From Pelagomonas calceolata (Eukaryota; Sar; Pelagophyceae; Pelagomonadales; Pelagomonadaceae), in the NCBI GenBank assembly GCA_918797485.1, contig CAKKNE010000006.1:2852001-2916000 (forward strand): DNA of 64,000 nt, read 5' to 3'. The translations under genes were made by a program, and so were the position numbers. Numbering within the stretch: the first letter of the stretch is position 1; the number at the start of each line of letters is the position of its first letter. Shown piece after piece: positions 5,437 through 45,408 of this stretch. The notes beneath the pieces are model-generated. The model was not told the DNA's origin and did no database searches. It was given only the letters and a program-made list of their open reading frames with translations.

Positions 5437-6669
5437 TTAACCGACTATTTCCCCGGGGAGCAGCTCGGTGAGTCGCGGGCCGGGGATCCGGGCATCCCAC
5501 TCGCTCAACCCGCGCATCACATATTGCGAAGGGATGGTGCCACCGCGACGCATATCATCCGGCGTGCGTGCTCGCGCTGGATATAGGTGTCCCGCGCCGA
5601 CGATGGCGTGGTACTCGCGCGTGCTGTCGTCTTCGCGCATGGCCGCTGTAATCGTCCGGGCCCAAGCTGCCTCGCGTCGCGTATTCAAAATAGTAGTGCA
5701 GGGCTCACGGGTGACGTCGTCGTGTCCCAGGACGCTCACGGCAAGCCTCCTCGTGAAATCGAGGGGAACGTCCCAAGGGCACCCGCCCAGGCAAAGGACG
5801 GCGGCGGAGACGGCGCCTTCTGCCTCCCACGGGTCAGACGTGTAGCCGTTCACAAATTCCAAAATCGCGAGCATGTCGAGAAACCATCTTGGCGCCGGCT
5901 CCTCCATTGGTGGGAGCCCGGCCGGGCCGGCCCCTAGCGCCATGAGAGCTGCGGTGCATGTCACGAGGTTGCTTCCGCGGGGATGGTCGGCAACCGTCGC
6001 TACGGTGGCATCCAAACTTCCAGACAGTAAAGGGTCCTTAAATAATGTGGCCGCAGCCCAGTCCTCCGCCCCCCATGGGTCCTCGAGGCCGCGGATGTTT
6101 GGCCCCTCGTATGAAATCTCCACGCCGTTCATTATCGTGAAGATCTCAGTCCTCTGGTTGCATTGGCCTTCCAGGAAAAGTACGATCTCGCCGCGGCGCG
6201 CGCGTTCTACCAAACGAGCCGTGCGGTCACCAAAGCCAGGGCCGGTGCATCTGTGGATGTCGGCGTGGTAGATCATGGGGTGGTTCTCGACGTCTAGCTG
6301 GTCGCCGTTCGCCATGCCAATCTCGGAAGCCGTCTGGTCGCCGCGGACGTGCGAGCCTTTGAACAGAAAGCGGAGTGAATCTACGGCGACGCCCTTGCGA
6401 GCGGCGTACGCGTTAAATACCTTTCGCATCCTTGTGTACTCCTTTATCTTGAAGTGCACGTCCGCGGCGACGATCAACAGCGAGCGTCGCGCCGGCGGCG
6501 GCGCCGCGTGACCCGCGTCTGGCGCGTCGTCGTCACGGCCGCGATTTCCCAGGAGGTTTAGCAAAGAATGAAGCATGCTAGCGCCGGAGCCGAACAACCC
6601 GAAAAAAGCCTGGCAAGACGTACCCTCGCGCGATCGGCGCGAGCACGCAGGACTACTTGAGAGGGTCAT
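5437..6669 (-). CDS. SUMO-like (Rad60-type) ubiquitin-fold domain protein
   Basis: Two in-frame ATGs are plausible, at 6669 (410 residues) and 6576 (379 residues). A ubiquitin-like domain covers about residues 65-130 of the longer form. It contains DVHFKIKEYTRMRKVFNAYA and LRFLFKGSHVRGDQTASEIG, the SUMO/Rad60 pattern of a V-x-F-K-I-K strand, a basic helix and R-F-L-F-x-G. No C-terminal diglycine follows, so it is a fixed domain and not a modifier. The remaining about 300 residues include GEIVLFLEGQCN and a later IVGAGHLYP, faintly like TraB/ChaN-type proteins. I would not name a function from this. Its stop is 24 bp from the convergent Qri7 stop. Confidence 0.6.
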   Translation of the reverse strand: MTLSSSPACSRRSREGTSCQAFFGLFGSGASMLHSLLNLLGNRGRDDDAPDAGHAAPPPARRSLLIVAADVHFKIKEYTRMRKVFNAYAARKGVAVDSLRFLFKGSHVRGDQTASEIGMANGDQLDVENHPMIYHADIHRCTGPGFGDRTARLVERARRGEIVLFLEGQCNQRTEIFTIMNGVEISYEGPNIRGLEDPWGAEDWAAATLFKDPLLSGSLDATVATVADHPRGSNLVTCTAALMALGAGPAGLPPMEEPAPRWFLDMLAILEFVNGYTSDPWEAEGAVSAAVLCLGGCPWDVPLDFTRRLAVSVLGHDDVTREPCTTILNTRREAAWARTITAAMREDDSTREYHAIVGAGHLYPARARTPDDMRRGGTIPSQYVMRGLSEWDARIPGPRLTELLPGEIVG

Positions 6670-6835
6670 TGGAGCAAAGCTTGATTTAATTTTGCGTTCT
6701 CCCGGTGCAATCGGCCGGTGTGTACTCGTAACACTCGACGACAATCTGTCGACGCGTGTGTTTGCCGCGCCCCAGGTCAAGTGTTACCCGGCAAAATAGG
6801 CAATGGCTTGTGAAAAAACGTGATTAAAATTTCCC

Positions 6836-6863
6836 GCGCTAGCGGCCTGTAAGACACTAGCAA
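6836..6863 (+). promoter_or_regulatory. upstream palindromic motif, copy 4
   Basis: GCTAGCGGCCTGTAAGACAC followed by TAGCAA, sense to the C2-repeat gene, 162 bp upstream of ATG 7026. The core GTAAGACACTAGCAA is intact and the left arm lacks the outer TT. Confidence 0.7.
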
Positions 6864-7025
6864 TCTCATCTCAGCGCCGAGGCAGCCCAGCATCGCAGCA
6901 GCACATACTCCGAGAGCAGGGCAGCCCACCCAACTGCCTCGGCACTCGACTGCGCCCGACGACGCGTAGGAGCGCCAGGACGACGATGCGGCGGTAGCAA
7001 GCCAAAGCGCAGAGAGACAGCAGCC

Positions 7026-10000
7026 ATGCCCAAGCGCCCGAACCTCCACGCTTTACAAGTGACAGTAATCTGCGGCGAGGACCTGCTCGCCGTCGATAGT
7101 AATGGCAAGTCCGACCCGTTTTGTGAATTGCAGCTCTTGGATGAATTTGATCAGCCGGTGTTTGGCAAGAAACGGACGCGGACGAAATCCAAGACGTTAA
7201 ATCCGACGTGGGACCAAACGATCACGCTGAAGCTGCCGAAGGACCCGAAGGCGCCTCGCACGCCGTTGGTCGTCGGTCACAAGGTACGCGTGCAGGTCAA
7301 GGACAGGGATAAAGGAGGTGTGTTTTCCTCGGGCGTCGTCACTAACTTGGGCCAATGCACCCTCTCACTAGCTTTGTTAAAACCTGGAGTAGCCCAAGAA
7401 CAATGGTATAAACTAGAAAGGGTCGGCGAGATGCAGCGCGTCTCCGGAAGGATTAGGGTCAAATGGTTTCGTGAGCAAGATCCCGAGTCTCCCACCAAGT
7501 CTCAATCGACGACGACTATTGTGGAAGCCTTACCTGAAGTGGAAGTAGCTGGTCCTGTCGAAGCGACGGAGACGGAGGAGCAGCGAGCGGAGCGAGAAGC
7601 GGAGTTAAGTGAACTGGGTGTCCCGCCAGGTACAGAACTACGAGTGCGGGACCCGGCGCCCTTCCTGCCGCCCAACGAGTTGACCGTGGTCTTGATGAAG
7701 GCTTCTTCTCTCAAGATCATGGATAGGAAGCTCTTCGGCGCCGGGAGCTCCGACCCTTATGTGAGGTTGGCTTGCGAGGGGGATCTGGCCAAATCAACGA
7801 CCAAACAAAAAGACCTGGAACCGACCTGGGAGGAGGTCTTTACGTTCGCGGCGTTCGACGAGCGGGCGTCGTTGTCGCTGCAAATGTACGACCACGACGA
7901 CATCGGTCTGATTGCGGCGTCCTTGGATTCGAGGCGCGTCGATGGCGTCTTCATGAGGCCACGCCGCGTCGACGCCGTCGCCGCGCCCGTCGCGTCTACT
8001 TGTGGGGGCTACGCGTCGCGTCGAGAGGCGTCGCGGCGTCACACGCGCGCGCGCGCAGGTTCCGACGACTTCATGGGTTCTGTGGATGTGCCCCTCGCGT
8101 CCTTACGAGACAAGAAGCTGGTAAGGCGCTCGCTACAACTGAGCAACGATGCTGGTGAAATAGATGTTTTCCTGTGCTGGCGCACCTCCCCGCACAACGT
8201 GGCCAAGCTGCCCAACGAGGTCCACGAGCTCGTCCAGGGCCAGGAGAAGTACAAGAGCCAAGCTCTGAACGAATTGATTGTTTGTCCGATACGCGCGACG
8301 CGATTAATTGGCGTCGACTCGCATCTAGGAGGTGGTCCCAAGACCTCGGACCCCTACGTTGTTTGTGATGTCGATGGTCTGCGCATGAAGACCAGCCACA
8401 AACAAAAGACGTGTCGACCGGAGTGGCTCGAGGTTTTGAAATTACCGGTCGACGGCTATTCAAGAGCATCTTTATCAGTAGAGGTCTGGGACCACAACCT
8501 CGGGAAAGATGTGTTCCTCGGGAAGTGTACGGTAGATCTGGCCAAATATGAGGATAGGAAAGGTCGGCGACGGTGGCGCACTTTAACAGATGAACGAGGC
8601 ATGCTCGACAAGGACCGAGGTCGCATCGAGCTCCATGTCGTGTGGCGGCACAACACAACTTTAAAGATCGAGATTCCAAGAGAGTTGGAGGACGACACTT
8701 TAGCTGCTGTTGATGAAAGCTTAGTGCCTCCGACCGAACTACAAGTGTTTGTCGCAAGAGGGCGTTTACAGAAGGAGTGCGACCCTTACCTTCGTGTCGA
8801 ATGCGAGGCCCATCGACAGGAAACGCTATCGCGGTCGAAGACGACCAAGCCCGTCTGGAAAGATACCCTTGTGTTAGGCCCTGTGGAGGGTGATGATGAT
8901 AACGTAGTGTTGTCTTTATATGACAAGAAGCCGTCAAGGGACAAGTTGATCGGGACGATCGAAGTGCCTCTCTGCTTATTGAGGAACAAGTGTCCCGTGC
9001 GGCGGTGGCTGCCGGTCAACGGTACGCTGTCTCCACAGGAGATTGCCCGTTGTCTGTCGATCGACACCCGGACGCGAGGAAATGAGGACCGGGAAGCCCT
9101 AGCCCTAAGTAAGAGGGGAGACTGCTACTACTCGTCCGACGAGAGTTCCGACGACGACGTCAGTGAAGATCCGGCGGAGCGCCTCGACCGCGCCAAGAGG
9201 AAGGTAAGAGAAAGTCTGAAAGCACTGGACAAGGCGGAATTGTTACCAGAACATACAGCAGAGGACGAAGTGAGGAAGATCGAGGCCATCACCGAGGCCG
9301 AGGCTTTGCACGATGACAGTCTGGCAGAGGAGCGCGCCGCACAAGCTCTGTACGACGACGACGAGACTTTGACACAGCAGTGTAGTGCAGAAGAGCAAGA
9401 GCAGGTCCGAGCACATAGTAGGGAGCACCGCATCACTATAGCGGAGGCCGGAGAAGCATTAGGCGTCTTCACTTCGAAAATCTTCGCGAGGTGGGTTCAG
9501 GAATTAATCGAGGCAAGACCGCCCCCACCAGATCCAAATGCACCGATTGCGCATGAAGCGTCCCCATTTGAGTATAGTGACTGGACTGCACCACAAAATC
9601 ATCTCGGGTCTGTGGATATTTGGTTCGCCTGGCGCCACAACCCGCAGCACTTCTACAAAGTGCCACGAAGCCTCGAGGAGGACTTTTACCCCGATCGTAT
9701 TGCCAATGAAGCGACCGTATGTGTGATACGGGCGAAGAAGCTGCTGTCAGTCCAGAAAGATAAGGACGCTGCTGATGCGATGGTGTCTCTCTCTCTACGA
9801 GGTAAGGAGAAGCACACGCGAGTGGTTCAGAAGACTCTCTTCCCGTTGTGGGGCCAGGCCTTCTACCTCCCTGCATTAGATAGCAGTAGTGTTATAGAAT
9901 GTACGGTTCACGATGTCGACGACCCGGGGCCGTACCAAACTTTAGAATTCATGGGTCGAACGTCGGTAGAGTTGAAACCCTTTCTTAACATACAAGGGAG

Positions 10001-13000
10001 AGGCAAGCGCCTGTGGTATTCACTGAAAGATAAGAAGAACAAACAAGATAGAGGTATCCTCGAGTTGTACGTGGCCTACCGGCATAATGTGGATTTGGCT
10101 ATCATACCGGTACCGGAAGAGGCGGCGGTCGATAGCTATAAACAGCGGGACGCGAACGAGTTGGTTATAGTCCTCGTAAGGGCGAGGCACCTCGGGAAAC
10201 GCGGGACCCCGCCAGACCAGGGTCCTCTATCACGCGTGCGCATCACATCTGGATCCTGGGCCTCTTCCGTATCCACAGAAAAAAGGGGCATCTCGCCGCT
10301 ATGGCTAGAAACTTTTAGAATCGAATGCGAGGACTTCGAAGAGGTCATCAGGTTCGAAGTACTTGAGAACGACGACGTACTAGGACACACGACGCTAGAG
10401 GTCAAAACTTTGGCAGGAAGAAAACCGATCAGGAAATGGTTCAAGCTCGATGGACTCGGGGATTTGGATTTGTGTCTACACTGGCACCATTCTACAGCTG
10501 TAAAAATACCACCATTAGCCCTCGAAACGCAACCTTCCGCTGACAGAAGGTTGCCTCTGAATTCCCTAGTTGTTACTGTTTTACGATGCCGAGGCTTGCG
10601 GCGACAAGACCTCGAGAAACGCGGTCCGGTCGGGCGGGGTCGGGTGCGCAAGTCACGAATCGAAGATGAGGCACCAGTGGAAGTACGGCCGGCCAACCCT
10701 CGAGTCAGGATGGAAATTGGTAACTTACCCCATCAATCGACCGATACGTACACCGAAGCAGGTAGGTCAGTGACGAACACTTTTAACCCCAACTACATGG
10801 AGACGTTTCGGTTTGACGACGTGTACGATGGCGGACTCGTTTGTAGGATATATGTGGAACATACCAGTAACAAGAAGCCCGAAATGATGGGTAAATGTCT
10901 GTGTGGAAATCAACCAGTGCGTCGGCAGCACCGATGCGGCCGTGCTGATACGGTCGAGCGGAACCGGCACCGCCACGCCGTCGAGCAGGCGTCGCGTCGA
11001 TGGCGTGGGGGTCGACGCGAAGATTTCCACACAGGTAAGTGTGCCGTGCCGGTGAAAGCATTATCGCACCGACGAGCTCTACGAAGGTGGTTGACATTAG
11101 AGGACAAGAAGGGCCGAGCCGACCCTTCATTGGGTAGAATTGAGTTGTGTCTGAGGTGGTGCCACAACCCGGAGCTCGAGGTCGAGTTAACTGAAGAGGG
11201 TGCTAGGGATCCGCACATGTCCAAAGCTCCGAACGAGTTGTTCGTCGTACTTATTAGGGCGAGAAACCTCAAACCCCAATCGAGGAAACACGACCAGTCG
11301 AAGCAGGCCGACCCTTTCGTTGTGTTGAGTTGCGCGGGCAAGGAGACGCGAAGTACGACAAAAAAAGCTACTTTAAATCCACGATGGGTCGAGCGCTACA
11401 CCTGGGACGCCGACGACGCTTCCGATGTCTTAGATATCGAGGTGCGGGACGCCTGCGCGTATACCGGGGCTGATTTTTTAGGTAGAGTGGGCGTGGAAAT
11501 GGACCAGCTCCGGAAGAGACATGCGTTGAGGAAGTTCTTGGTGTTGAAGAACGAGGAGGATTATAGGGATGACGAGCGGGGCGAAATTGAACTCTTGTTG
11601 CACTGGCGGCACAACCCGCACTTCACTCCTAAAAAATTTCCCGAGGAAAGTCCGTTTTCTCGGCGTTTCCGAACTTCAAGTTGCGTCGACGGGCGTCGAC
11701 GGGCGTCGATGCGGCCGTCCGAGAGTCTACGCGTCGCGCGAGAGCGTTCCCCGCGCAGGCGACAGCTACGACAGACCAGGTAAACCGAACTGCTTAGTCG
11801 TCGTTTTAGTAAGGGCGAAGAAGCTTAAAAGATTAGAAAAATACGCGGAGACGCCGGGGACCACCGACCCGACCTGCCTACTCACATTAGACGGCGAGAA
11901 AAAACGGTCACGAACCGTGGAAAATCAGTTGAACCCCCACTGGAACCAGAGCTTCAAATTCAACGATATTGAGGACCTGAAGCTCGATCGGGACACGCAG
12001 CATCACTTACATGTTGATATCTTCGACACGGATGCTGATGGTGAGACGACGAGTATCGCCTCCTGCAAGGTACCGTGTTTCAAGTTCCGAGACCGGAAGC
12101 CGCACCGAGCGTGGCACTGGTTGCATCGTGGGAACGACGGGGCCCAATCATCAGGCAAAGTGGAACTCGTGTGTAGATGGGTCCACGACGCCTCGTTAAT
12201 TTTACCTGTGGATTTGAATAACGTCTACGAGGACGAGGGGTCGGAGGTCCAGCAGCCCAACGAAATCACGGTGCACGTCGTTCGTTGCCGCCAGTTGATC
12301 AGAACGAGTCGCACGCTGGCGTCGAAGGACACCAGCAACCCCTTTGTGCGCGTGAGTACGACGTTCGAAAGTAAGAGGACGAAGACCGCTCGGCGGACGG
12401 TCGCGCCCGTCTATCAGAAACGGTTTTCGTTTGAAGGGCGACAAGGTGACCACGACCTGCTGGTGGAAGTGTTTGATAGCTCTACCGAGGAGCCCTTATT
12501 TATGGGTAGAGCTAGATTAGCTTTGAAAGAACTGAGAGAGCGCAAACCAATCAGAAAATGGCTGACGTTGACGGACGAGTACGGGCGGAAGGACAAGCGA
12601 CGAGGTCAAGTAGATATTGTATGCTGGCACTTCTATAGGGGTAGGTATGTTGTTAGTATACCGAATTCTGTAGAGGACGACCCCGCGGTGGAAGGCCCCT
12701 GCAACCAGATCTGCGTCTGTTTAGTTAGATGTTGGAATTTACCGGTCAGACAACATAAAAGTAAAGATGCCGTGCGCGCGGCGGATCCCTTTGTTGTTTT
12801 GCGGTGTGGGGAACAAGAAAGAGCGACGCAAGTCGAGGAGGGCACGGTCCATCCCTTGTACCAAGAAGTGTATAAGTTCCTGGCGCCGGAGGAGACCGAA
12901 GTTCGTGTAGACGTCTGGGATTACGACGGGTGCGTATCTCCGCGTTTTGAAGTGTTGCGGCGCCTTCACGCCATCGACGCGCGTCGTCTCCGGGAGAGGA

Positions 13001-14975
13001 TGTCGTGGCTGGTTTCTTTTTCGATTTTGATGCTCCGCGCAGGTTGCGGGCGAACGCCTGGGTCGGGTCGTGCACGCTGAAGACCTGTGATATTGCTCGC
13101 GACAAGGACGAGGCGTACCGGGTCTGGCTTCCCCTCAGAGATGAATTTGGGCAGATCAAAACGGGTTTAGTTGAATTGTACGCTCGGTGGCACACGTCTT
13201 TGAAGCTCTGGTCTCCTGCCACTGATGTGATAGAAGTAGCAGAAGGCGTGACCGAGGAACGAGTCTATAGACCAGGAAAACCGACCGGTATTTGTCCGGA
13301 ACAGCTTGTGTGCATCGTGAGATGCGTCAACGGTCTCCAGAACTTACGGCCAGGCACGGCTGTTTGGTGTAGAGTGAAAGTTCGCCAGCAAAAGTTCCAA
13401 ACGACGCCGAGACGCGTGACGGACCACGATTCCGTATATATCCAAGAGAGGTGCCATTTCTACGTCGATGGCGTCGAGGGTCCGGGCCACTGGGACGGGC
13501 CTGCTATAAAAGTAGAGTTGTACGCCGCTTCAAATGCGTCGTCTTCACCAGATTGGTGTACGGTCTTAGCGGCGTATGACGTGCCCATTCATCAAACGTA
13601 CATGAAAAATGAGGCTACTGTCGTACGAGTCTCGGAGGACTTCTCAGTCGAGTTGTTTCTGCGATGGAGGCACTTACGAGACGCGCGGACCTACGAGGGC
13701 GCGCAACGCATGAAACGAGAGGAGAAGAAGCCCAAGACAGGCTTGGGCCTCGCCAAATTCCTGGAGAACGCCCAGCAGTACGGCGAATCCGACGAAGAGA
13801 GTACGGTGGCTTCGAGTAGTGAGTCGTCGCATCTTCGCGGTTATGTGTCCGAGGGTCACGTGTCGTCGTCGGACGAGGCATCGTATGATGACAGTGACGC
13901 CGTCTCTGTTCTTGTAAAAGTCGAGGCTTGTCGAGGCGTGCCGGCGCCTCGATTTGTGGAGCTGGAGGCGTCGGTGAGTGTCAGTGCTGTCGACGCGAAC
14001 AACCAGGACGACCTGTTCGAGGGGTCGTACGCCACAGAAAAGGCTCATGCTTCGTTTGAAAGTTCGCACGCCGTCGGAGCTAAATTTGCTGATATCGCAT
14101 TTGCGTCGGAAGAGCGCATGGTCGTGTCATCCTCATCCATACTACGCTTCTCATTATCGGCGCAGGGCTCCATACAAGAACGTAGATATGTCTCGAAGAA
14201 GCCGTTACGGTGTCTCGGGTTCTGTCGCCTGTGGCTCAAAGGCTCGAAACCGCGTTCAATAACAAAGTGGCTCCAGATCAACGGCGGCTCGTTGTCCTCA
14301 GACGAGTGGACGCACGATAGAGGAGAGTTGAAAGTTACTGTTACTGTCGAAGGGCCGGCTGATAGCGATGAACTACTAGTAGATGAGCCCTGGCGCCAGG
14401 ACATAGAAGAGTCTCCACCGTTTGGACTAGAGTCGTTAAGAGACCTCCCACCGCTCCAGCACAAGCATCTGACGCCGTTAGTTCTACCAGAGACGTATCT
14501 CCATACGGGCGGGTTGCCAGGAATTAGAAAGAAGAACGCGCGGGCTTACCGTGAAGCATTATCCAAACTACCGCTGCTGGACGCGACGGATGAAAAATCT
14601 AAAAGAAGACTAGTCGAGCAGCACTTCATGCGGGTAGCAGGTTACGCCGTGGCGTCTCGAATCTTGTCGAAGTCGCTGAAGGCCAACGATCTACCGCCAC
14701 CCGGCAAAAGACGCTTCGACGGGTCGGGCTACTTCTACCCCGCCGGGGCGCCGGACCCTCGACGGCCCCGAGGCGCGTACCCGGACACAAAAGCCAGTAC
14801 GTTAAGGTACGATTCAAGTGTAGCGTGGCGCGACAGACTGGCCGACGCCAAGGAGAAGATCGACCATAGCAAGCCCGTCGCCGATCCCGGTGCGAAGCTT
14901 TGGAGGTGTGGTCGCACATTCTCATTGCTGCCGGGGAAAAGGAAGCCAGGGGAGGCGCTTCCGACTGTGAGTTAG
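7026..14975 (+). CDS. multi-C2-domain protein, about 13 C2 domains
   Basis: Five exons (7026-7905, 8059-10890, 11035-11649, 11759-12929, 13043-14975) join to 2,476 codons plus stop with all phases matching. C2 domains start near residues 7, 217, 363, 519, 842, 992, 1127, 1303, 1453, 1609, 1757, 1919 and 2120. Each opens with a strand like NELxVxLVRAxxL and most continue to SDPYV or ADPFV, where C2 domains place Ca2+-binding Asp residues. The later copies have lost some of these. Most repeats end with a WRHNP-type linker. No transmembrane segment is seen, so it is not a ferlin or synaptotagmin-like anchor. Tandem C2 arrays bind phospholipid membranes, often with Ca2+. A scaffold or tethering role is inference. 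Four introns are introner-like, each falling inside or next to a C2 unit. Confidence 0.88.
7906..8058 (+). other. introner-like intron 1 of the C2 gene (153 nt, stop-free)
   Basis: GT at 7906 and AG at 8058. Removing it joins YDHDDIG to SDDFMGS, the normal C2 sequence. Length is a multiple of three with no stop, so retention would add 51 residues. It carries hairpin-core pieces (GCGTCGATGGCGT and CGCGTCGACGCCGTCG). Confidence 0.8.
10891..11034 (+). mobile_element. introner with terminal inverted repeats and 8-bp target duplication (C2 gene intron 2)
   Basis: The element spans 10899-11034. Its ends are CTGTGTGGAAATC and GATTTCCACACAG, a perfect 13-bp inverted repeat. The flanks are GTAAATGT (10891-10898) and GTAAGTGT (11035-11042), an 8-bp duplication with one mismatch. 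The left copy supplies the GT splice donor and the element's own CAG is the acceptor. Splicing restores MMGKCAVPV in the C2 domain exactly. The 144-nt intron is in frame and stop-free. The interior has the hairpin core CCACGCCGTCGA facing TCGATGGCGTGG. Confidence 0.9.
11650..11758 (+). other. introner-like intron 3 of the C2 gene (109 nt)
   Basis: GT at 11650, AG at 11758. The exon join reads PEE-S-DSYDRPGKPN, bridging the two reading frames of the gene. It contains repeated GCGTCGACGGGCGTCGA-type core pieces. Confidence 0.75.
12930..13042 (+). other. introner-like intron 4 of the C2 gene (113 nt)
   Basis: GT at 12930, AG at 13042. Removal joins VWDYDG to LRANAWVGS and restores the frame. 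It contains CACGCCATCGACGCGCGTCG, the family core. Confidence 0.8.
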
Positions 14976-14987
14976 TACTGTTTACTC

Positions 14988-16172
14988 TTAGCTAGATGGG
15001 TCGTCGTGCGCATCGCTCGGCGTCATCGCGGCCATGGCCTCGCGGATGGCACTCACTTCGCGGGCTACGAGCGCGGCTCCAGCACATCGCAGCTTGCTCT
15101 CAAGCATCGTTACCAGCGGGTGTGCGCCGCCAAACACACGCCGCGCGGTCCGTTCCGCATCCTCGAGTGTCGTCACAGCCTCACGGAGATCGTCGAGCGT
15201 GGCGCCGTCGTCTTTGTAGAGCGCTACCGCATAAGCTTTCCTCATCCTGAGCGTGACTTCATTCCTCTCGCCGAAAATGCGTCGCGCCACGGGCATCGTT
15301 CGGCGCAGCAGTGATTTGGCTTCTTTCAAGCGCCGTAAATTGACGAGGGATCCTGCGTAGTTGTAGGCTGCTTGGAGGGTAAGTGGATACTCCTCGCCGT
15401 TTAACTTTAGACGTCCGGAGTATACGTCTCGCTCTATGCTTAGGGCCTTTTCCATATTTCCAAGCTCTCCATACGTGACCGCAAGATTGCTCTGCGCAAC
15501 GAGCACGTTTTCTTCCGATGCGCCAAGGCGCTGCTTCATGGACAAAATAGCCTCTTCCACGGACAACGCGTCCTCGTGGTGGTCTGCACTGGATAGGCCG
15601 CTACCAAGCAGCGCCATCGCAGCTCCCGGAATCCAGTCCGCCTCCGGCCGCCCCAGGTACGTCTTCCAGCACGCCCACCCGAGCGCGCACAATACGACGC
15701 CGTGGTATTGTTGCTCGCACAGGCTACACGTGTGCCACCGCTGGAACCTCTCATCAAACGCCTTGTCGCCCAAATTGTTCTCCTCGGCTTCCGCGACCAA
15801 AATCTTCGCCTGCTCCGCCAAGCACGACACGTGCACAAAACCAGACGTCCCGCGGCACGCGCACCCGCGCACGAGGCCCTCCTTCGTCTTCCAATGGAAG
15901 GCCTGCGTGCAGATGAAGCACGTCTGGCCCTTCGTGTCGTCAGCGCACGCCTCCGCCGCGACCGCGACGGCCTCTGTGTACTTGTTATTTGCGTTGTATT
16001 GCTCGGCGCCGCCTGCCTTTTTTATTGGTTTGCAGAGCGTGTCGTGGCCGCCCTCTTTCCAATGCTGCACCTGGCATTCAGGCCCACAATAGCGCGTGCT
16101 GCAGCGGCCGCATTTCTTGCCCAGTGATAAGCCAAGCTCGGTGGCGCAGACGGCGCATTTTGTGAGGATCAT
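14988..16172 (-). CDS. MYND and RING-variant zinc finger protein with C-terminal TPRs
   Basis: The ATG at 16172 gives 394 residues. Residues 6-46 form a MYND zinc finger (CAVC, then CGRC, YCGPECQ and HWKEGGH ending in LC). Residues about 83-155 carry a RING-variant-like Cys/His set (CFICTQ, GCACRGTSGFVHVSC, CSLC). From about 185 to 370 there are kinesin-light-chain type TPRs (AQSNLAVTYGELGNMEKALS, AVTTLEDAERTARRVFGGAH). MYND and TPR both bind proteins. A RING-variant module would suggest ubiquitin ligase activity, which is inferred only. Its stop is 12 bp from the convergent C2-gene stop. Related TPR remnants lie at 59.8-60.4 kb. Confidence 0.82.
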   Translation of the reverse strand: MILTKCAVCATELGLSLGKKCGRCSTRYCGPECQVQHWKEGGHDTLCKPIKKAGGAEQYNANNKYTEAVAVAAEACADDTKGQTCFICTQAFHWKTKEGLVRGCACRGTSGFVHVSCLAEQAKILVAEAEENNLGDKAFDERFQRWHTCSLCEQQYHGVVLCALGWACWKTYLGRPEADWIPGAAMALLGSGLSSADHHEDALSVEEAILSMKQRLGASEENVLVAQSNLAVTYGELGNMEKALSIERDVYSGRLKLNGEEYPLTLQAAYNYAGSLVNLRRLKEAKSLLRRTMPVARRIFGERNEVTLRMRKAYAVALYKDDGATLDDLREAVTTLEDAERTARRVFGGAHPLVTMLESKLRCAGAALVAREVSAIREAMAAMTPSDAHDDPSS

Positions 16173-27779: not shown

Positions 27780-29730
27780 ATGCGGTCACTCGCCACCGCG
27801 CTCGTGGTGGCGCTGGCCAGCGGCCTGGCGCCGCAAACCAAGCCCAGTGCTGCCAAGGTGCAGCAAAAGGCGCGCAGCTGCGTCGATTTGACTCAAATTG
27901 CAAGCCGCGCGGCGCCATCGACGCGACGCCGTGCCCGTCACCGCATCTGCGCGCTGGCGTGGGCTTCCACGCCATAGACGCGACGTCGCCTCCGTAACGC
28001 AAAACACACAGGCCCTCAGCAAGCAGCTCGGCACGCTCGCGGCCGGCGTCGCGCTCGCCGGCGTCGCCGCCGCGCCGGCCGCCGTCTTCGCCGAGGACGC
28101 CGTCGCCGAGGCGCCCGCCGCCGCCAAAGCCGCGGGCCCGGCCGCCGGCCGCACGGAGTTCCAGCGCCAGCTCTCCGCGCTGCGCGAGACGAAGCCCGCG
28201 GCCGCGAAGCCCATCGTGCGCGAGGCGCCGGCTGCGGCGCCGGCGCCGACGAAGGCCGCGCCCAAGGCCGCTCCGAAGGCCGCGAAGCCCGCGAAGAAGG
28301 AGGCTCCGGCCGTGGCGGACGGCGCGCCGCGCGCCGCCGACGTGTCCTTCGACAAGCCCGCTCAAGCGAAGCGCGAGGGCAAGGTCATCAAGAAGGCGCC
28401 GGCCAAGCCCAAGTCGGAACGCGACGCCGACGCCGCGAAAGCCAAGGAGGCGGCCCGCGTCGCCGCGCGCGAGAAGGCCGCGGCCGCGGCCGCCGCGCAG
28501 GAGGCGAAGGCGGCGGCGAAGGCCGCCGAGGCGGCCCAGGCGCGCGCGGCGCGCGCCGCCGCGAAGGCCGCGGCGCCTGCTGCGCCTGCGCCGGCGCCCG
28601 CCAAGGGCAAGGTCGTTATCCGTGTGTCCTTTGTCCCCTTCCCCGCGCCATCGACGCGACACATGAATCACCGGTCGACTCCCTGCCCAGGCGAAGGCCG
28701 CGCCGGCGCCGGCTCCTGCGCCCGCCAAGGGCAAGGTCGTTCTCCGTGTCCGTTGTCCCCTTCAGTGCATCGATGGCGTGACACATGACTCACCGGTCGA
28801 CTCTCTGCGCAGGCGAAGGCCGCGCCGGCGCCGGCCAAGGCGCCCGCCAAGGCCGCGCCCGCGCCCGCGGCCAAGGCGTCGAAGGCGCCCGCCGATAAGG
28901 CGAAGACCGCCGCCGCCGCGACGGCGAAGGGCAAGAAGGAGCTCGGGCTGCTCCTGCCGGAAGAAGTGGCTAGAGAAAAAACCCTCGACCAGATCGCCGA
29001 GACGCGCGAAAAGAAGAAGGAGGCCCGGGCCTTGCGAGGCATGGCGGGCAACACGAAGAACGAGGTGAAGAAGTACAAGGCGCAAGAGAAGGCCCTCGAC
29101 AAGAAGCTCGCGGCACTCGCGAAGTCGAAGCGCCAGCAGGACGCGCGGGTCGCGCGCGCGAAGGGCCGCGCGGCCAAGGCGAAGCAGCGCGCGGCCAAGG
29201 TCGAGAAGGTGGTGACCCCGCGTCCCTTCGTGACGCCATCGACGCGACGTCGTCCCGCCCGACGCAGGCCAAGCGCAACCGGGAAGCCAAGGTCGCGTCC
29301 CGCAAAAAGGCGGCCCAGGCGCGGGCCGACTCGAAGCGCCGGGCGTCGGAGCCTGTGTGGAAATCAGCCTCCACGCCATCGAGCAGACGCAGCTACGGAG
29401 ACAACGTCGCGTCGATGGCGTGGGGCGCCCGAAATTTGATTTCCACGCAGGTCGGAGGCCAAGGCCGCGCAGGCCCAGCGCAAGAAGGAGAAGCGCATCG
29501 CCAACGAGGCCGCCAAGAAGCTCGCGCGCCAGAAGGCGCTCGACGCCAGGGCGGCGACGAAGAAGGTTCGCGCCGGCGTCCTTCCTTCGACGCCTTCGTG
29601 ACCGTCCCGTTCGCAGGCTCAAATCGAGAAGAAGAAACGCAACGCCGCGGCCGCCAGCGCCGCGCGAAAGAAGGCCGCCGACGCGCGCAAGGAGGCCGCG
29701 CGCAAGCGGGCCGCGCGGCGCCGCCGCTAG
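27780..29730 (+). CDS. seven-exon Lys/Ala-rich plastid-targeted protein with micro-introns
   Basis: Exons 27780-27857, 28012-28611, 28691-28735, 28813-29208, 29268-29344, 29451-29565 and 29617-29730 join to 474 residues in frame. Exon 1 encodes a signal peptide (MRSLATALVVALASGLAPQ). Exon 2 begins with a second hydrophobic stretch ending AAAPAAVFAED, like a thylakoid-lumen signal with an A-x-A site. The rest is Ala/Lys/Pro-rich with coiled-coil KKKEAR-type segments and ends in a strongly basic tail. The composition recalls histone H1 or nucleoid proteins, but the presequence points to the plastid. Six introns, five of them only 51-106 nt, divide 1.4 kb of coding sequence. Function unknown. 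Confidence 0.75.
27858..28011 (+). other. introner-like intron 1 of the Lys/Ala-rich gene (154 nt)
   Basis: It separates the signal-peptide exon from the next exon. It contains two copies of the core, GCGCCATCGACGCGACGCC and CCACGCCATAGACGCGACG, suggesting one introner landed near another or an internal duplication. Confidence 0.7.
28612..28812 (+). repeat. tandem duplication of a 45-nt exon together with its intron
   Basis: Intron A (28612-28690, 79 nt), exon 28691-28735, and intron B (28736-28812, 77 nt). The introns are copies: both begin GTCGTT(A/C)TCCGTGT and end in a shared box around CACCGGTCGACTC before CAG. The exon after each starts GCGAAGGCCGCGCCGGCGCC. The unit was therefore duplicated as exon plus intron. 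The central core differs: A has GCGCCATCGACGCG, B has GTGCATCGATGGCG. Confidence 0.8.
29209..29267 (+). other. 59-nt introner-like intron
   Basis: GTGGTG at the start, CGACGCAG at the end, phase 0, with TGACGCCATCGACGCGACG at its centre. The remaining sequence is little more than splice sites plus the core. Confidence 0.75.
29345..29450 (+). mobile_element. introner with terminal inverted repeats and 8-bp target duplication
   Basis: The element spans 29353-29450. Its ends are CTGTGTGGAAATC and GATTTCCACGCAG (12 of 13 positions complementary). The flanks GTCGGAGC (29345-29352) and GTCGGAGG (29451-29458) are an 8-bp duplication with one mismatch. As in the C2-gene copy, the left duplication provides the GT donor and the element the CAG acceptor. 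Splicing joins RRA-SEAKAAQ. The interior has CCACGCCATCGAGCAG facing CGTCGCGTCGATGGCGTGG. The left end is identical to that of the C2-gene element. Confidence 0.9.
29566..29616 (+). other. 51-nt micro-intron
   Basis: GTTCGC to TTCGCAG, phase 0, joining ATKK to AQIEKKKR. It contains a stop codon in frame. Only a weak trace of the core (TTCGACGCCTTCG) remains. Confidence 0.7.
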
Positions 29731-39332: not shown

Positions 39333-40829
39333 ATGCGACGCGCGCTCGTCTTCCTCCTCGGCGCCCTCGGCGCCCGCGACGCTCTCGGTCTAGTCGGACC
39401 GAAGCCGTGGGCCCGGGGCGCCGCCAGCTCTCGCGCGTCCGTCGTCGCCTCGACAGAGATGGTGCGGGCGCGACCCCCGAAGGGCCTCGGCATCCACTGG
39501 ACGCCGACCCTGAGCGTCGGTCAGCTCTTGCATAAACTCCACAGTGTCGATGGCGTCCAGCAGTATAAGCCGAGACGCTCGTGCAAGTCGGGCGGCGGCC
39601 TGCAGACCGGCCACCTCGCGCAAGCCCTCTACGACGCCAACTGCAACATGCTCTCGTACTACGACGAGGACGACGCGATCTGGCTCCACCCGGAGGCGGA
39701 GAAGCTCAAGAAGGACGCGGTGTGGCGCGCGACGCACCGGCCTGCGCGGCGCGAGACCGGCGCCTACGCGATGATCGTGCCGGGCGAGCAGATACTCGGC
39801 GAGGTGCGCCAAATCTGGCGCCAGGAGGACGGCGTGCGGACGTCGCGCGTCGTCCTCATCAACGGCTCGGCCGTCCCGACGCTCCAGGCGACGGCGCGCG
39901 AAGACGTCAAGGAGTACCTCGCGAAGGTTCTCGACGATGCGCCGGCCGTCGCCGCGGCGGCCATGGATGACTACCTGGAGGAGGAGCTCCAGGCCCAGAT
40001 TTCGCTCTGGGAGCAGAAGGCCATCGACGCGGCCGACGCGGCCGACGAGGTCGACGCCGAGGCCCTCCGCCAGGCGTTGCGGGACGTCTGCGTCGAGTGC
40101 GGGTGGCGGGCGCTCCACCCCGAAGACGAGATCCTCCCCGAGACCGAGGACAGGGAGGTGTCTTATTTGGGGTCGCCGCGGTGCGTCGCGCACGATCTCG
40201 TCATGGACTCGTTCTTCGGCCGGCTCGACACGGGCCCGCGCGACGAGCACGACGGGGACCTCACGGTGTACCGCGCGGCCATCAGCAAGGGCACCGCGGA
40301 GTACCCCGGCCCCAAGCTCTGGGAGGAGCTCGTCCTGCGGCGCGTCCCGAAGCTCCGCGAGCACATCGAGGGCACGGTGGACGAGGAGGAGCGCAAGGCC
40401 CACCTGCAGGTGCTCAAGAACCTCGTGAAGATGCTCGCCGTGGACCACATGTGGTCGTCCGCGCGCCCGCGCCGAACTATCACTCGGCCCGACTCACTGG
40501 TTGATTCGCACAGGTTTGTATGCGACCACCCGAAGAACTGCGCGAACGCGGCGTCGACTCGAGCCGGGCGCGTCGCGCGGCGCGCGCGACTCACTGGTCA
40601 ACACGCAGGCTACCTCGAGTGGAGTGCGGTCAACCGTTTTGACCGGTGCCTATCCTGCGATTTACTCGAATTCACACCTCGTCCGCACGCAGGCTACTTC
40701 TCCGACGTCAACAACCAGGACGCGAAGCTGGCCCGCGACGGGGACTTCGCCAAGGCCGAGTCCATCGCGTTCATGGACGAGGCCATCGATGGCGAGCTCA
40801 AGCTCTTCTCGGTCACCGATCGCGAGTAG
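39333..40829 (+). CDS. secretory or organelle-targeted protein, unknown family, with clustered introns near its 3' end
   Basis: The ATG at 39333 starts a signal peptide (MRRALVFLLGALGARDALGL). The unspliced frame is 498 codons and open throughout. About 370 residues of hydrophilic sequence follow with no domain I know; features include AHDLVMDSFFGRLDTGPRDE and a Glu-rich helix (HIEGTVDEEERKAHLQVLKN). Between 40451 and 40692 the sequence changes character and carries three acceptor-like ends (40513, 40608, 40692), two of them with the introner 3' box CGACTCACTGG. The last exon resumes as GYFSDVNNQDAKLARDGDFA. The exact exon structure in that stretch is not resolved. Confidence 0.6.
   Translation: MRRALVFLLGALGARDALGLVGPKPWARGAASSRASVVASTEMVRARPPKGLGIHWTPTLSVGQLLHKLHSVDGVQQYKPRRSCKSGGGLQTGHLAQALYDANCNMLSYYDEDDAIWLHPEAEKLKKDAVWRATHRPARRETGAYAMIVPGEQILGEVRQIWRQEDGVRTSRVVLINGSAVPTLQATAREDVKEYLAKVLDDAPAVAAAAMDDYLEEELQAQISLWEQKAIDAADAADEVDAEALRQALRDVCVECGWRALHPEDEILPETEDREVSYLGSPRCVAHDLVMDSFFGRLDTGPRDEHDGDLTVYRAAISKGTAEYPGPKLWEELVLRRVPKLREHIEGTVDEEERKAHLQVLKNLVKMLAVDHMWSSARPRRTITRPDSLVDSHRFVCDHPKNCANAASTRAGRVARRARLTGQHAGYLEWSAVNRFDRCLSCDLLEFTPRPHAGYFSDVNNQDAKLARDGDFAKAESIAFMDEAIDGELKLFSVTDRE
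40451..40692 (+). other. cluster of two or three packed introner-like introns, boundaries uncertain
   Basis: Acceptor-like ends at 40513 (CGACTCACTGGTTGATTCGCAC then AG), 40608 (CGACTCACTGGTCAACACGC then AG) and 40692. Donors near 40451-40457 leave phase 2, while the acceptors at 40608 and 40692 need phase 1. At least one small internal exon is therefore required, one option being 40514 onward. GCTACCT after 40608 and GCTACTT after 40692 are similar, suggesting duplication. Confidence 0.5.
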
Positions 40830-41853: not shown

Positions 41854-44604
41854 CTATAAGACGCCCATCCGCTCCATGTTTCGCAATCTCACGGAAGCGG
41901 CGTGGACGGTCGAGCCCACGTGCTTGAACCGCGCGTGGCCCGTATAGCGCTTGATCTCCGCTTTCTCGCGGCGGCCCTTCCAACGATAATAAAGTTCGAA
42001 GGGGCGCAGGACGACGGCCTCAATGACGAGCTCGTGCTCGGAGAGGACCGTGTCCACCCTCCAGAGGCGCCGGAGCACGCTGTATTGCCAGGCGGTCAGC
42101 GCGTCCTCGAGCCCGTAGACCTTCTGAAGGATGTCGGGCCCCGGCCCTTTCGGGTCGAAGAAATCGCGCTCGATCTGCGCGACGCGCGCTTTCCCGTCCG
42201 TGTGCTTCGCCCGGGCGCCGTAGAAGATCGCCGCGAAACGATCGTCGACGTCGCCCATGCCGAGGAGCAGGTCCGGCGGGCACGGCACAGCTAGGTGCCA
42301 CCGGCGATCCAAATCGACGCCCAGTCGGGAGCAGACCAGCCGGTGGCGCGCCTCGATAATCAGGAACTCCCGCTTCAGCCTCGCCGTGGGCTTGGTCTGC
42401 CACGCGCGGCGGCGGTGCAGCCGTTCCCAGTAATCGCGGTAACAGCGGCTGGACGGCGGCGGGTGGAGCGGCGCGGGCTCCTCCGGGTCGTCGTCGGAGC
42501 AGTCGCACTCGGTGCTGTCGCCGTCGGAGGCGTCCTCGTCCGACGGCGGCGGCGGCGGCGACGCGGCCTTTTTGCGGCGGCTGCGCTTTGAGCTCGACGG
42601 GCGGCCGCGCGACTCGCTCGATGCGCTCGGCGAGCGCGGCGGTATCGGCGATGGCGTCGGCGACCGCTGAACAGTAGCACCGCGGCCGCGGCCGCCGCGT
42701 GCGCGCGCGCCGCGCGGCGACGCGGCCGCCGGTGCCGGGGCAGCTGCCGCGGCGCCGCGCGCCTGCCGGCGGCGCCGCGCGCTGGCCGCAGCTTCCGGCG
42801 CGCCGGCGACGGCGCCATCGCCGCCGCGGCCGCGCGTCGGCGACGAGATGGGCATGGCGTCCGGGTCGTCCTCGCCGTCGCTGCCTTCACCAGACGGTTT
42901 GGGCTTCTTTGACTTCCTCCCCGCCTTCGCGGACGACGTAGGCTTTGCCGTCGGCCTCCGTCCCGGCGTCTTGTCTCGGGGCGGCGGCGGCGCTGCGCGC
43001 GCGCGCGGGCGCCGGGTCGGCTCGCGGCGGCCCCGCGCCGGCGGCGGCGCAGGAGCAGGCGCATGCGCGGCGTCGGCCGTGGCCGCGGCGCCGCGGCGCC
43101 GCGACGACGTGGCGGACGCCGGCGCGCGCGCGGGCGGCGCGCGCGGCGCGGGCGGCTCGCGGCGCCGCGGCGGCGGCCGCGGCGCGGGCGCGGGCTCGGG
43201 CACGGTGGCGGCGCCGAGACCTCGGCGTGCCGCGGCCTCGGCTTGTTGGGATCGGCAGCGGAAGCACGCGTAGTCCTCGGGGCACTCGGCGTCTTCCGCG
43301 CCGGCGGCACACACGGCGTGCTGCCACGTTTTGCACGTCGGACACTCCCACATGGCCTTGCCGTCGTCGTAGTTCGTGCCGGACACCCCGCACAAGCAAT
43401 CGAAGCGCCACGTGGCGGCGCTTTCCGCGGGCATCGGCGCGCGCGCGGCGGGCGCGGCCGTCGGCAGCGGCGCGGTGCGGCGGCCCTGCATCGACGCGAG
43501 CGCCCCTTTGCCGGGCTGGTTCGGCAGCTGGCCGTCCTTGACGCCGCGCTTGCGCGCCGCGAGGTTTTCCCGCAGCTCCGCGTCGCGCACCGCGCGGCCG
43601 CACTTCTTCAGCACGAGGTCGGCCGCCCTGGCGAGGCCGTTCTTGTCGCGCCGGAAGCGTTTGACCTTGCGCTCGCGCCGGCCGCGCGGGCCCTCGCGGT
43701 ACTCGACCACGACCCAGTTGTCGGGGTCGGTCGGGCAGGGATGACTGCCCGGGCCGAGGCCGAGGCCGCGCCGCAGCGCGCTATACGCGCCGGTTCCCGG
43801 TGCGGCCCGCGGCACGCGCCCGCCCGACGCCTTCCGCCGCGCCATCTCCTCGATGACCCACGCCTTGAAGGCGCGCTCCTTCTCGGTGCCCACGGGGAGG
43901 CGGTTCTCCGCGCCGTCGTGGTCCGGGTGCAGCGCCAGCGCGACGACCGTCTCTCGATGCGCCCGCGTGAACGCCTCTTCCTCGCAGTCCGCCCGCGTGA
44001 CCGCGGCCGCGTACCTTGCGAGGTCTTCGGCCGTCGGCTCGCGCGCGTCGCCGTGCGCTTCGTGGAAGAGCCGTCGCGCCAGGTCCTCCCGCATAGCTTC
44101 GGGGGCGAATGAGACAGGAGCGCGCTTCGTCAGGACCGGGTAGCAGACCGGCTGCCCTCGATTTGACCAGAACGCGAGCACAGCCGCGCCCGTGCCGTCG
44201 TCCGACGTGTCCTCGTCGCTGCCGTCGTTGAAGACGACGGCTACCACCAAGTTTTCGCCCGGGCCGGCGGCGTCGACGCCCTTGTGCCACTTCTCCGCGC
44301 CGCGGGCCGGCGCTCTCTCCTCCGGCTTGCAGGTCTCACTAATTCTCGTTGAAATGCTACCATGGGGCGCCTTGCGTCTGAACAATATGACCGGTGGGTC
44401 GTCGCGTCTTTTGGCCAAGGCCCAGTGATCGGTGCACGTCACGAAGGCCAACAAGTCGGTGGATTGTGTCAAGTTGTACTTGGGGCCGCGCGCGATCTTG
44501 AGCAGCCGCGCGAGTTCGGCTTTGTGCAAAGGGTTCTTGCAATTGTATGCGATGGCTTTCAATTTTTTGGAGTCGCCCGGCTTGGCCTGACCCTTAGAGG
44601 CCAT
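41854..44604 (-). CDS. PHD-finger chromatin-type protein with long basic linker
   Basis: The ATG at 44604 gives 916 residues. An earlier non-ATG extension is not used. N-terminal about 380 residues form an unrecognised domain (NCKNPLHKAELARLLKIARG, YNLTQSTDLLAFVTCTDHWA). A PHD finger follows at about 398-452 (FDCLCG, WECPTCKTWQHAVC, YACFRC), the C4HC3 pattern that reads histone H3 tails. Residues about 460-720 are low-complexity Pro/Ala/Arg/Ser, probably disordered and nuclear. The C-terminal 190 residues (DYWERLHRRRAWQTKPTARL, LRRLWRVDTVLSEHELVIEA) are a conserved-looking helical region without a name I can give. A segment near residue 210-250 is copied in the neighbour at 41487. Confidence 0.72.
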   Translation of the reverse strand: MASKGQAKPGDSKKLKAIAYNCKNPLHKAELARLLKIARGPKYNLTQSTDLLAFVTCTDHWALAKRRDDPPVILFRRKAPHGSISTRISETCKPEERAPARGAEKWHKGVDAAGPGENLVVAVVFNDGSDEDTSDDGTGAAVLAFWSNRGQPVCYPVLTKRAPVSFAPEAMREDLARRLFHEAHGDAREPTAEDLARYAAAVTRADCEEEAFTRAHRETVVALALHPDHDGAENRLPVGTEKERAFKAWVIEEMARRKASGGRVPRAAPGTGAYSALRRGLGLGPGSHPCPTDPDNWVVVEYREGPRGRRERKVKRFRRDKNGLARAADLVLKKCGRAVRDAELRENLAARKRGVKDGQLPNQPGKGALASMQGRRTAPLPTAAPAARAPMPAESAATWRFDCLCGVSGTNYDDGKAMWECPTCKTWQHAVCAAGAEDAECPEDYACFRCRSQQAEAAARRGLGAATVPEPAPAPRPPPRRREPPAPRAPPARAPASATSSRRRGAAATADAAHAPAPAPPPARGRREPTRRPRARAAPPPPRDKTPGRRPTAKPTSSAKAGRKSKKPKPSGEGSDGEDDPDAMPISSPTRGRGGDGAVAGAPEAAASARRRRQARGAAAAAPAPAAASPRGARARGGRGRGATVQRSPTPSPIPPRSPSASSESRGRPSSSKRSRRKKAASPPPPPSDEDASDGDSTECDCSDDDPEEPAPLHPPPSSRCYRDYWERLHRRRAWQTKPTARLKREFLIIEARHRLVCSRLGVDLDRRWHLAVPCPPDLLLGMGDVDDRFAAIFYGARAKHTDGKARVAQIERDFFDPKGPGPDILQKVYGLEDALTAWQYSVLRRLWRVDTVLSEHELVIEAVVLRPFELYYRWKGRREKAEIKRYTGHARFKHVGSTVHAASVRLRNMERMGVL

Positions 44605-45068: not shown

Positions 45069-45408
45069 TCCCTTGCTGTGCTGGTTCTCCACACGTCGCG
45101 CCTCGCCCCCTTTCGCACACGTCGACTGGGTACCCAGCTCAGGTCCGTTGCACCAAATGCCCCAGCGACTGCAGCCAGAGCTAAAAATCGTGGAAGACGC
45201 CCTCGCAGCGACGCGCAGAGGCATTCGTGGACGCGGCGAGTGCACGGGAGCTGCCACTGGTACCGGCCGCAGCTTCCTGGCAGCAGGAACTGCGTCGCGA
45301 GCAGCTCTAGGAGCAGAGCACGGCTGAAACAGGGAGAGGTGCTCTCGACAGCGACGGACGCGACCGACCACCCTCGAAACGCCGCGTCACAGCTATTAGC
45401 AAGCAAAA
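45069..45408. other. intergenic region upstream of pyruvate carboxylase
   Basis: 340 bp without a gene. The last 20 bp before the ATG read GCTATTAGCAAGCAAAA, echoing the CTAGCAAG end of the palindromic motif without its core. Confidence 0.35.

What the first reader, a model, noticed from the sequence alone, without database searches (positions are those of the whole stretch)
10891..11042. Introner caught with intact transposon hallmarks in a C2 domain
The intron is a 136-bp element with perfect 13-bp terminal inverted repeats (CTGTGTGGAAATC / GATTTCCACACAG) between 8-bp target duplications (GTAAATGT / GTAAGTGT). The left duplication is the 5' splice site and the element supplies the 3' site. 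Excision restores the C2 reading MMGKCAVPV. DNA-transposon-like introners are known from Aureococcus and Micromonas; this looks like a young copy.
Basis: partly seen in the sequence, partly recalled or inferred. Interest (0 to 1): 0.85.

Follow-up and report, generated by a model that had tools for sequence, protein, structure and literature searches.

The report
Transposon-made intron in an algal gene
A short jumping-DNA element has landed in a protein-coding gene of what looks like an alga and seems to be read as an intron, so the protein is not disrupted; a second copy lies in another gene nearby, and the mechanism is already known from related algae.

Summary
At 10899-11034 lies a 136-bp element with 13/13 terminal inverted repeats (TIRs) between 8-bp direct repeats matching 7/8. 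Thirty simulated windows gave one such structure in all.

The first intron is 144 nt and stop-free, so an open frame cannot prove splicing. Nine paralogous C2 repeats of the same gene supplied a test: of 106 in-frame, stop-free GT-AG introns around the site, exactly 10891-11034 restores the C2 domain best (82.2 bits; next 75.9; unspliced 70.3).

Best reading: a non-autonomous DNA transposon acting as an introner. The TIR supplies the 3' splice site, the target duplication the 5' site. This mechanism is known from other introners, so this is a new member of a known kind.

Further: both elements share a palindromic core found in many other predicted introns, and the TIR holds a second possible donor that would leave 12 nt, the arithmetic published for an Aureococcus sp. 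family. "Young" is only partly supported. No RNA, whole genome or second strain was available.

The parts
10891..11034 (+). intron (144 nt): left target duplication plus element
   Evidence: First of 106 in-frame stop-free GT-AG candidates against a profile of nine paralogous C2 repeats; also called as an intron by a crude gene finder that overcalls introns in this gene
10891..10898 (+). left target duplication GTAAATGT, inferred 5' splice site GTAAAT
10899..11034 (+). element e1, 136 bp, 13-bp perfect TIRs
10899..10911 (+). left TIR CTGTGTGGAAATC; holds an alternative donor GT at 10903
10973..11008 (+). 36-bp palindromic core CCACGCCGTCGA...TCGATGGCGTGG, similar to stretches in other predicted introns
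11022..11034 (+). right TIR GATTTCCACACAG, supplies the inferred 3' splice site CAG
11035..11042 (+). right target duplication GTAAGTGT (exonic)
29345..29450 (+). second introner-type intron (106 nt) in a Lys/Ala/Arg-rich reading frame; not a multiple of three, so retention shifts the frame
29353..29450 (+). element e2, 98 bp, TIR 12/13, between GTCGGAGC (29345-29352) and GTCGGAGG (29451-29458)
29371..29423 (+). palindromic core of e2
40454..40513 (+). candidate decayed relative: inferred intron whose 3' end resembles the inverted left end of e1; no recognisable TSD or left TIR; open in frame if unspliced
6861..13080 (+). host gene region: tandem C2 domains (ORF 6861-11783 plus continuation in ORF 11548-13080 after an inferred intron); outer gene ends not settled
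   Evidence: Pfam PF00168, 8 stretches in 6861-11780 and 3 in 11548-13077

Best explanation
e1 is a non-autonomous, MITE-like DNA transposon that became an intron on insertion (an introner). Inferred steps: a transposase supplied in trans recognised the 13-bp ends and inserted the element, duplicating 8 bp. The target began with GT, so the left duplication became the 5' splice site (G|GTAAAT). Each end of the two elements reads ...CCACRCAG outward, so whichever way round it inserts, the downstream end can supply a 3' splice site. The spliceosome then removes the left duplication plus the element, the right duplication restores the original codons, and the C2 protein is unchanged. Shown here: ends, duplications, second copy, the frame requirement at the second copy, and best C2 restoration at the first. 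Not shown: transposition, transposase and splicing.
For: Exact TIR/TSD anatomy, rare by chance. Second copy with the same ends and an unrelated 8-bp target (GTCGGAGC/G) in another reading frame; its 106 nt must be removed to keep the frame QAKRNREAKVASRKKAAQARADSKRRASEAKAAQAQRKKEK. A profile from nine other C2 repeats of the gene scores exact excision 82.2 bits and retention 70.3, and 10891-11034 ranks first of 106 GT-AG alternatives, next 75.9 (all 106 were scored). Among all 48-residue in-frame deletions of the domain, those starting at residues 110-113, at the insert, tie for best. Pfam C2: 34.9 bits, profile 5-104, excised; 28.2 bits, 5-92, retained. Both target duplications begin with GT although the scan did not ask for it; GT frequency is 0.054, so roughly 0.003 for two, on only two cases. 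Both introns fold into hairpins with the TIR stem as the base (z -5.3 and -6.3).
Against: No RNA reads. The e1 intron is stop-free in frame; 23.5% of 20,000 shuffles are too. Only two intact copies are visible and no whole genome is held. One mismatch in each duplication. No transposase family was matched (E up to 0.001) in the 32 of 71 listed long ORFs that I gave to Pfam (3, 29; list); the other 39 were not scanned. Apart from e1, e2 and a chance-level candidate at 45076, no place in the window has both CT...AG-ended TIRs of at least 9/13 and a 7/8 duplication, so other introns do not show the scar.
Confidence: 0.86

Rival explanations
1. The element carries both splice sites: the donor is the GT inside the TIR (CTGT|GTGGAA) and the acceptor the other TIR's CAG, so 12 nt (8-bp duplication + 4 bp of element) stay in the mRNA as four extra codons, whatever the target sequence.
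For: The sequence has this GT in both copies (10903 and 29357). The intron lengths 132 and 94 keep the same frame as exact excision. The crude gene finder chose exactly 29357-29450 for e2. Gozashti et al. 2022 (PMC9860276, section 7 read) describe an Aureococcus sp. family that carries both splice sites and adds 12 bp = 4 bp from the introner + 8 bp of TSD.
Against: For e1 this version scores 73.4 bits against 82.2 for exact removal, because four residues are added inside a conserved C2 strand. Both targets begin with GT, which this model does not need. The published family's letters were not seen.
Confidence: 0.17
2. A MITE inserted in frame and is retained in the mRNA, adding 48 residues inside a C2 domain.
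For: 144 nt, no stop in frame.
Against: It splits a conserved strand and lowers the C2 score. The sister copy would shift the frame. 23.5% of shuffled inserts are stop-free anyway.
Confidence: 0.06
3. An ordinary intron whose inverted ends are a chance or RNA-structural palindrome, not a transposon scar.
For: Predicted introns here often contain palindromic stretches.
Against: Direct repeats sit exactly at the TIR boundary in two unrelated reading frames with the same 13-bp ends; 1 such structure in 30 simulated windows.
Confidence: 0.02

Closest known systems
Introner elements of Aureococcus anophagefferens (Huff, Zilberman and Roy 2016; recalled, the paper is not held)
   Same: Short non-autonomous transposons; one splice site carried and the other co-opted from the duplicated target so that splicing is exact (recalled). 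PMC7789003 (passages) says the A. anophagefferens introners always show direct repeats and TIRs of constant length and canonical splice motifs.
   Different: Consensus letters could not be compared, so whether this is the same sequence family is unknown.
Aureococcus sp. introner family 4 (TARA_AOS_82_MAG_00129), Gozashti et al. 2022 Fig. 2F (PMC9860276; passages, section 7)
   Same: 8-bp TSD. A GT at position 5 of the TIR here would give the same 4 + 8 = 12 bp footprint.
   Different: The published family is said to carry both splice sites; e1 here fits exact excision from the TSD better. The published letters were not seen.
Symbiodinium microadriaticum introners (same paper, Fig. 2B legend)
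   Same: TIRs, 3' splice site carried, 5' splice site taken from the TSD.
   Different: 4-bp TSD instead of 8 bp.
Amoebophrya introners (PMC7789003, passages)
   Same: Inverted repeats at intron ends that can fold into a hairpin joining the exon ends; direct repeats at the boundaries.
   Different: Mostly non-canonical splice motifs and 3-5 nt direct repeats there; canonical GT-AG and 8 bp here.

Membership tests
Introner (transposon-derived intron) | Similar sequence forms introns in unrelated genes of one genome | tested here: met
   e1 in a C2 gene and e2 in a Lys/Ala/Arg-rich frame share 13-bp ends and a palindromic core; only two intact copies in 64 kb
Introner (transposon-derived intron) | Element boundaries coincide with splice sites and splicing keeps the reading frame | tested here: met
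   e1: first of 106 GT-AG candidates; e2: removal needed for frame. Inferred from protein reading, no RNA; donor of e2 not settled
Introner (transposon-derived intron) | Spliced in RNA | not testable with these tools
   no transcript data
Introner (transposon-derived intron) | Many copies per genome (families of 5 to more than 2,000 in PMC9860276, section 7) | not testable with these tools
   no genome held; TIR-pair patterns gave 0 hits in viral contigs and one unrelated bacterial intergenic hit in genome contigs
Introner (transposon-derived intron) | Presence/absence between strains or orthologues | tested here: inconclusive
   no orthologue found: 5 pattern matches in viral contigs, none confirmed; collections with eukaryote genomes were not available
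TIR DNA transposon, non-autonomous (MITE) | Terminal inverted repeats | tested here: met
   13/13 and 12/13
TIR DNA transposon, non-autonomous (MITE) | Target duplication of fixed length directly at the TIR | tested here: met
   8 bp, 7/8 match in both copies
TIR DNA transposon, non-autonomous (MITE) | Autonomous partner with the same ends | not testable with these tools
   no other TIR copy in the window; rest of genome not available
Aureococcus sp. introner family 4 | Both splice sites internal, 12-bp footprint | tested here: inconclusive
   GT present at the right place; disfavoured for e1, undecidable for e2

The most novel reading that the evidence does not exclude
One TIR may serve two modes of intron birth: exact removal when the 8-bp target happens to begin with GT, and otherwise an in-frame 12-nt footprint through a second donor inside the TIR, so that an insertion in any orientation and at any target is tolerated. 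Older introns of this genome, marked by the same palindromic core and CRCAG acceptors, would be the decayed remains of earlier waves, in which the downstream TIR survives as the acceptor while the upstream TIR erodes.
Probability: 0.2. Interest if true: 0.65.

Novelty: new member of a known kind. Interest (0 to 1): 0.45.

Why it matters
It is a clean case of a coding exon split by a transposon with the scar still readable, in a gene whose own tandem repeats serve as an internal control for the empty site. If the dual-donor reading holds, it would explain how an element can become nearly splice-neutral at almost any target, and the core-bearing introns would let intron age be read inside one genome.

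Tried and rejected
Retained in-frame insert: rejected on the C2 profile and on the frame of the second copy. Third copy at 45076-45142 (TSD GTCCCTTG/GTCCGTTG, TIR 9/13): not claimed, because 20 shuffles gave 0.4 such hits per window on average. Three further TIR/TSD hits in GC-rich repetitive tracts (28585-28712, 42714-43094, 43088-43173): set aside by eye. Core 18-mer in viral contigs: 12 stretches, 0 of 12 with the inverted partner nearby; judged chance matches. TIR pair in genome contigs: 1 hit, an intergenic hairpin without TSD in a contig titled uncultured bacterium; judged convergent. Inner end of e1 in viral contigs: 2 hits without TIR. Rfam at gathering threshold: no match.

Erosion of the upstream TIR: weak support only. 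Of 30 CAG-ended introns scored (e2 left out, and the two at 40454-40608 left out because I had picked them for resemblance), 6 have a 3' end and 2 a 5' end (read as reverse complement) among the top 5% of background likeness to the four known ends; with those two added it is 8 and 2 of 32.

Rows dropped: from the C2 profile I left out the domain under test and one domain truncated by an intron, leaving 9 of 11. Of 58 predicted introns, 20 starting at 7001-14999, where the crude gene finder overcalls, and one cut by the window end were left out; 37 were counted, e2 among them. In one search one of the hand-added C2 introns was ended at 11779; an end near 11758 is also possible. My first scan missed e2 because it demanded four identical end bases; searches did not.

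Full report
Observation. A second copy with the same ends lies at 29353-29450 between GTCGGAGC and GTCGGAGG. Scanning the window for TIR of at least 12/13 plus duplication of at least 7/8, lengths 60-400, gives 5 places: these two and three in GC-rich repetitive tracts; 30 simulated windows gave 1 hit in all.

Is it an intron? The C2 ORF 6861-11783 runs through e1 without a stop, and 144 nt is a multiple of three; 23.5% of shuffled inserts would also be open. I therefore used the gene's own repeats. A profile of 9 of its 11 recognised C2 repeats (test domain and one truncated domain left out) scores the domain 70.3 bits with the insert and 82.1-82.2 without. Of all 48-residue deletions, those starting at residues 110-113, at the insert, tie for best. 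Of 106 in-frame stop-free GT-AG introns of at least 40 nt that could be cut around the site, 10891-11034 is first; the next are 10897-11034 (75.9) and 10903-11034 (73.4). Pfam agrees: C2 34.9 bits over profile 5-104 when excised, 28.2 over 5-92 when retained. At e2 the intron is 106 nt, so the Lys/Ala/Arg-rich frame continues only if it is removed. A crude gene finder trained on the window also chose 10891-11034, but it overcalls introns in that gene; for e2 it chose 29357-29450.

Which donor? In e1 the duplication donor GTAAAT restores the C2 strand exactly. A GT inside the TIR (CTGT|GTGG) would leave 12 nt, four residues, in a conserved strand and scores lower. In e2 both donors keep the frame and the protein is of low complexity, so it cannot be decided. 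Both duplications begin with GT although the scan did not ask for it (GT frequency 0.054), which favours the duplication donor, on two cases only. The 12-nt arithmetic is that published for an Aureococcus sp. family (4 bp of introner + 8 bp of TSD; PMC9860276, section 7), whose letters I could not see.

Age. TIRs are 13/13 and 12/13, but each duplication has one mismatch (in e1 a synonymous AAA/AAG Lys), and e1 and e2 align well only in TIRs and core. 'Young' is fair for the anatomy, not proved by divergence.

The core. Both elements hold a palindrome, CCACGCCRTCGA...TCGATGGCGTGG. GCGTCGATGGCGT occurs 29 times with up to 1 mismatch (0.29 expected). By the crude gene finder's labels, 17 of 26 hits of the 18-mer GTCGCGTCGATGGCGTGG (up to 3 mismatches) fall in introns (5,712 bp), 5 in exons (47,489 bp; at least one of these lies in an intron I infer at 7906-8058) and 4 between genes (10,799 bp). 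Of 37 predicted introns outside the C2 region, e2 among them, 12 carry the core (up to 2 mismatches); equal-length exon stretches gave 1.53 on average, at most 7 in 200 draws. Of the 12 with the core, 10 end in CRCAG, of the 25 without, 3 (Fisher p 4e-5). These labels are rough, and part of the association may reflect false introns among those without the core. Outside e1, e2 and the chance-level 45076 candidate, the window has no place with both CT...AG-ended TIRs (at least 9/13) and a 7/8 duplication, so a common origin of the core-bearing introns with e1 is an inference. One intron inferred at 40454-40513 ends in a stretch resembling the inverted left end of e1 (score 33); of 1,797 CAG-ended 30-mers on both strands it is the best after the four ends of e1 and e2 themselves (next 27). 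It is likewise open if unspliced.

Setting. ORFs nearby match TsaD, pyruvate carboxylase domains, indoleamine dioxygenase, thioredoxin-like domains, a KN homeobox and the photosystem II assembly factor YCF48 (32 of 71 long ORFs were given to Pfam), which suits a photosynthetic eukaryote. GC per 2 kb is mostly 0.60-0.70 and about 0.54-0.55 at 8001-14000. Pelagophyte identity is inferred from the introner type, not tested.

Known work. Huff et al. 2016 is recalled only. PMC9860276 was read by passages and section 7, PMC7789003 and PMC12768974 by passages; of other papers I saw search listings only. The mechanism, one splice site carried and the other taken from the duplication, is in PMC9860276 and in the recalled work.

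Verdict. Confirmed observation, supported interpretation, new member of a known kind, with an open and testable question about the donor and about the core-bearing introns.

Noticed in passing
window 28582-28852: Tandem duplication (122-bp unit, 2.2 copies) that contains exon sequence and a predicted core-bearing intron in each copy. In the two otherwise alike introns (28615-28690 and 28739-28812) the core lies in opposite orientations.
   Followed up: partly
window 40594-40616 and 40678-40700: Direct repeat of 23 bp (83% alike) around possible 3' splice sites, 84 bp apart; the gene model here is unclear.
   Followed up: partly
window 6001-16000: The region of the tandem C2 gene has lower GC (0.54-0.59 per 2 kb) than most of the window.
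   Followed up: no
L013 3766-3897: Bacterial MAG intergenic hairpin with the same 12 bases at both ends (CTGTGTGGAAAT), arms longer than 12 bp, no TSD; probably convergent.
   Followed up: yes
window 29802, 30646: Core motif copies about 70 and 30 bp after inferred stop codons, i.e. in likely 3' untranslated regions.
   Followed up: no
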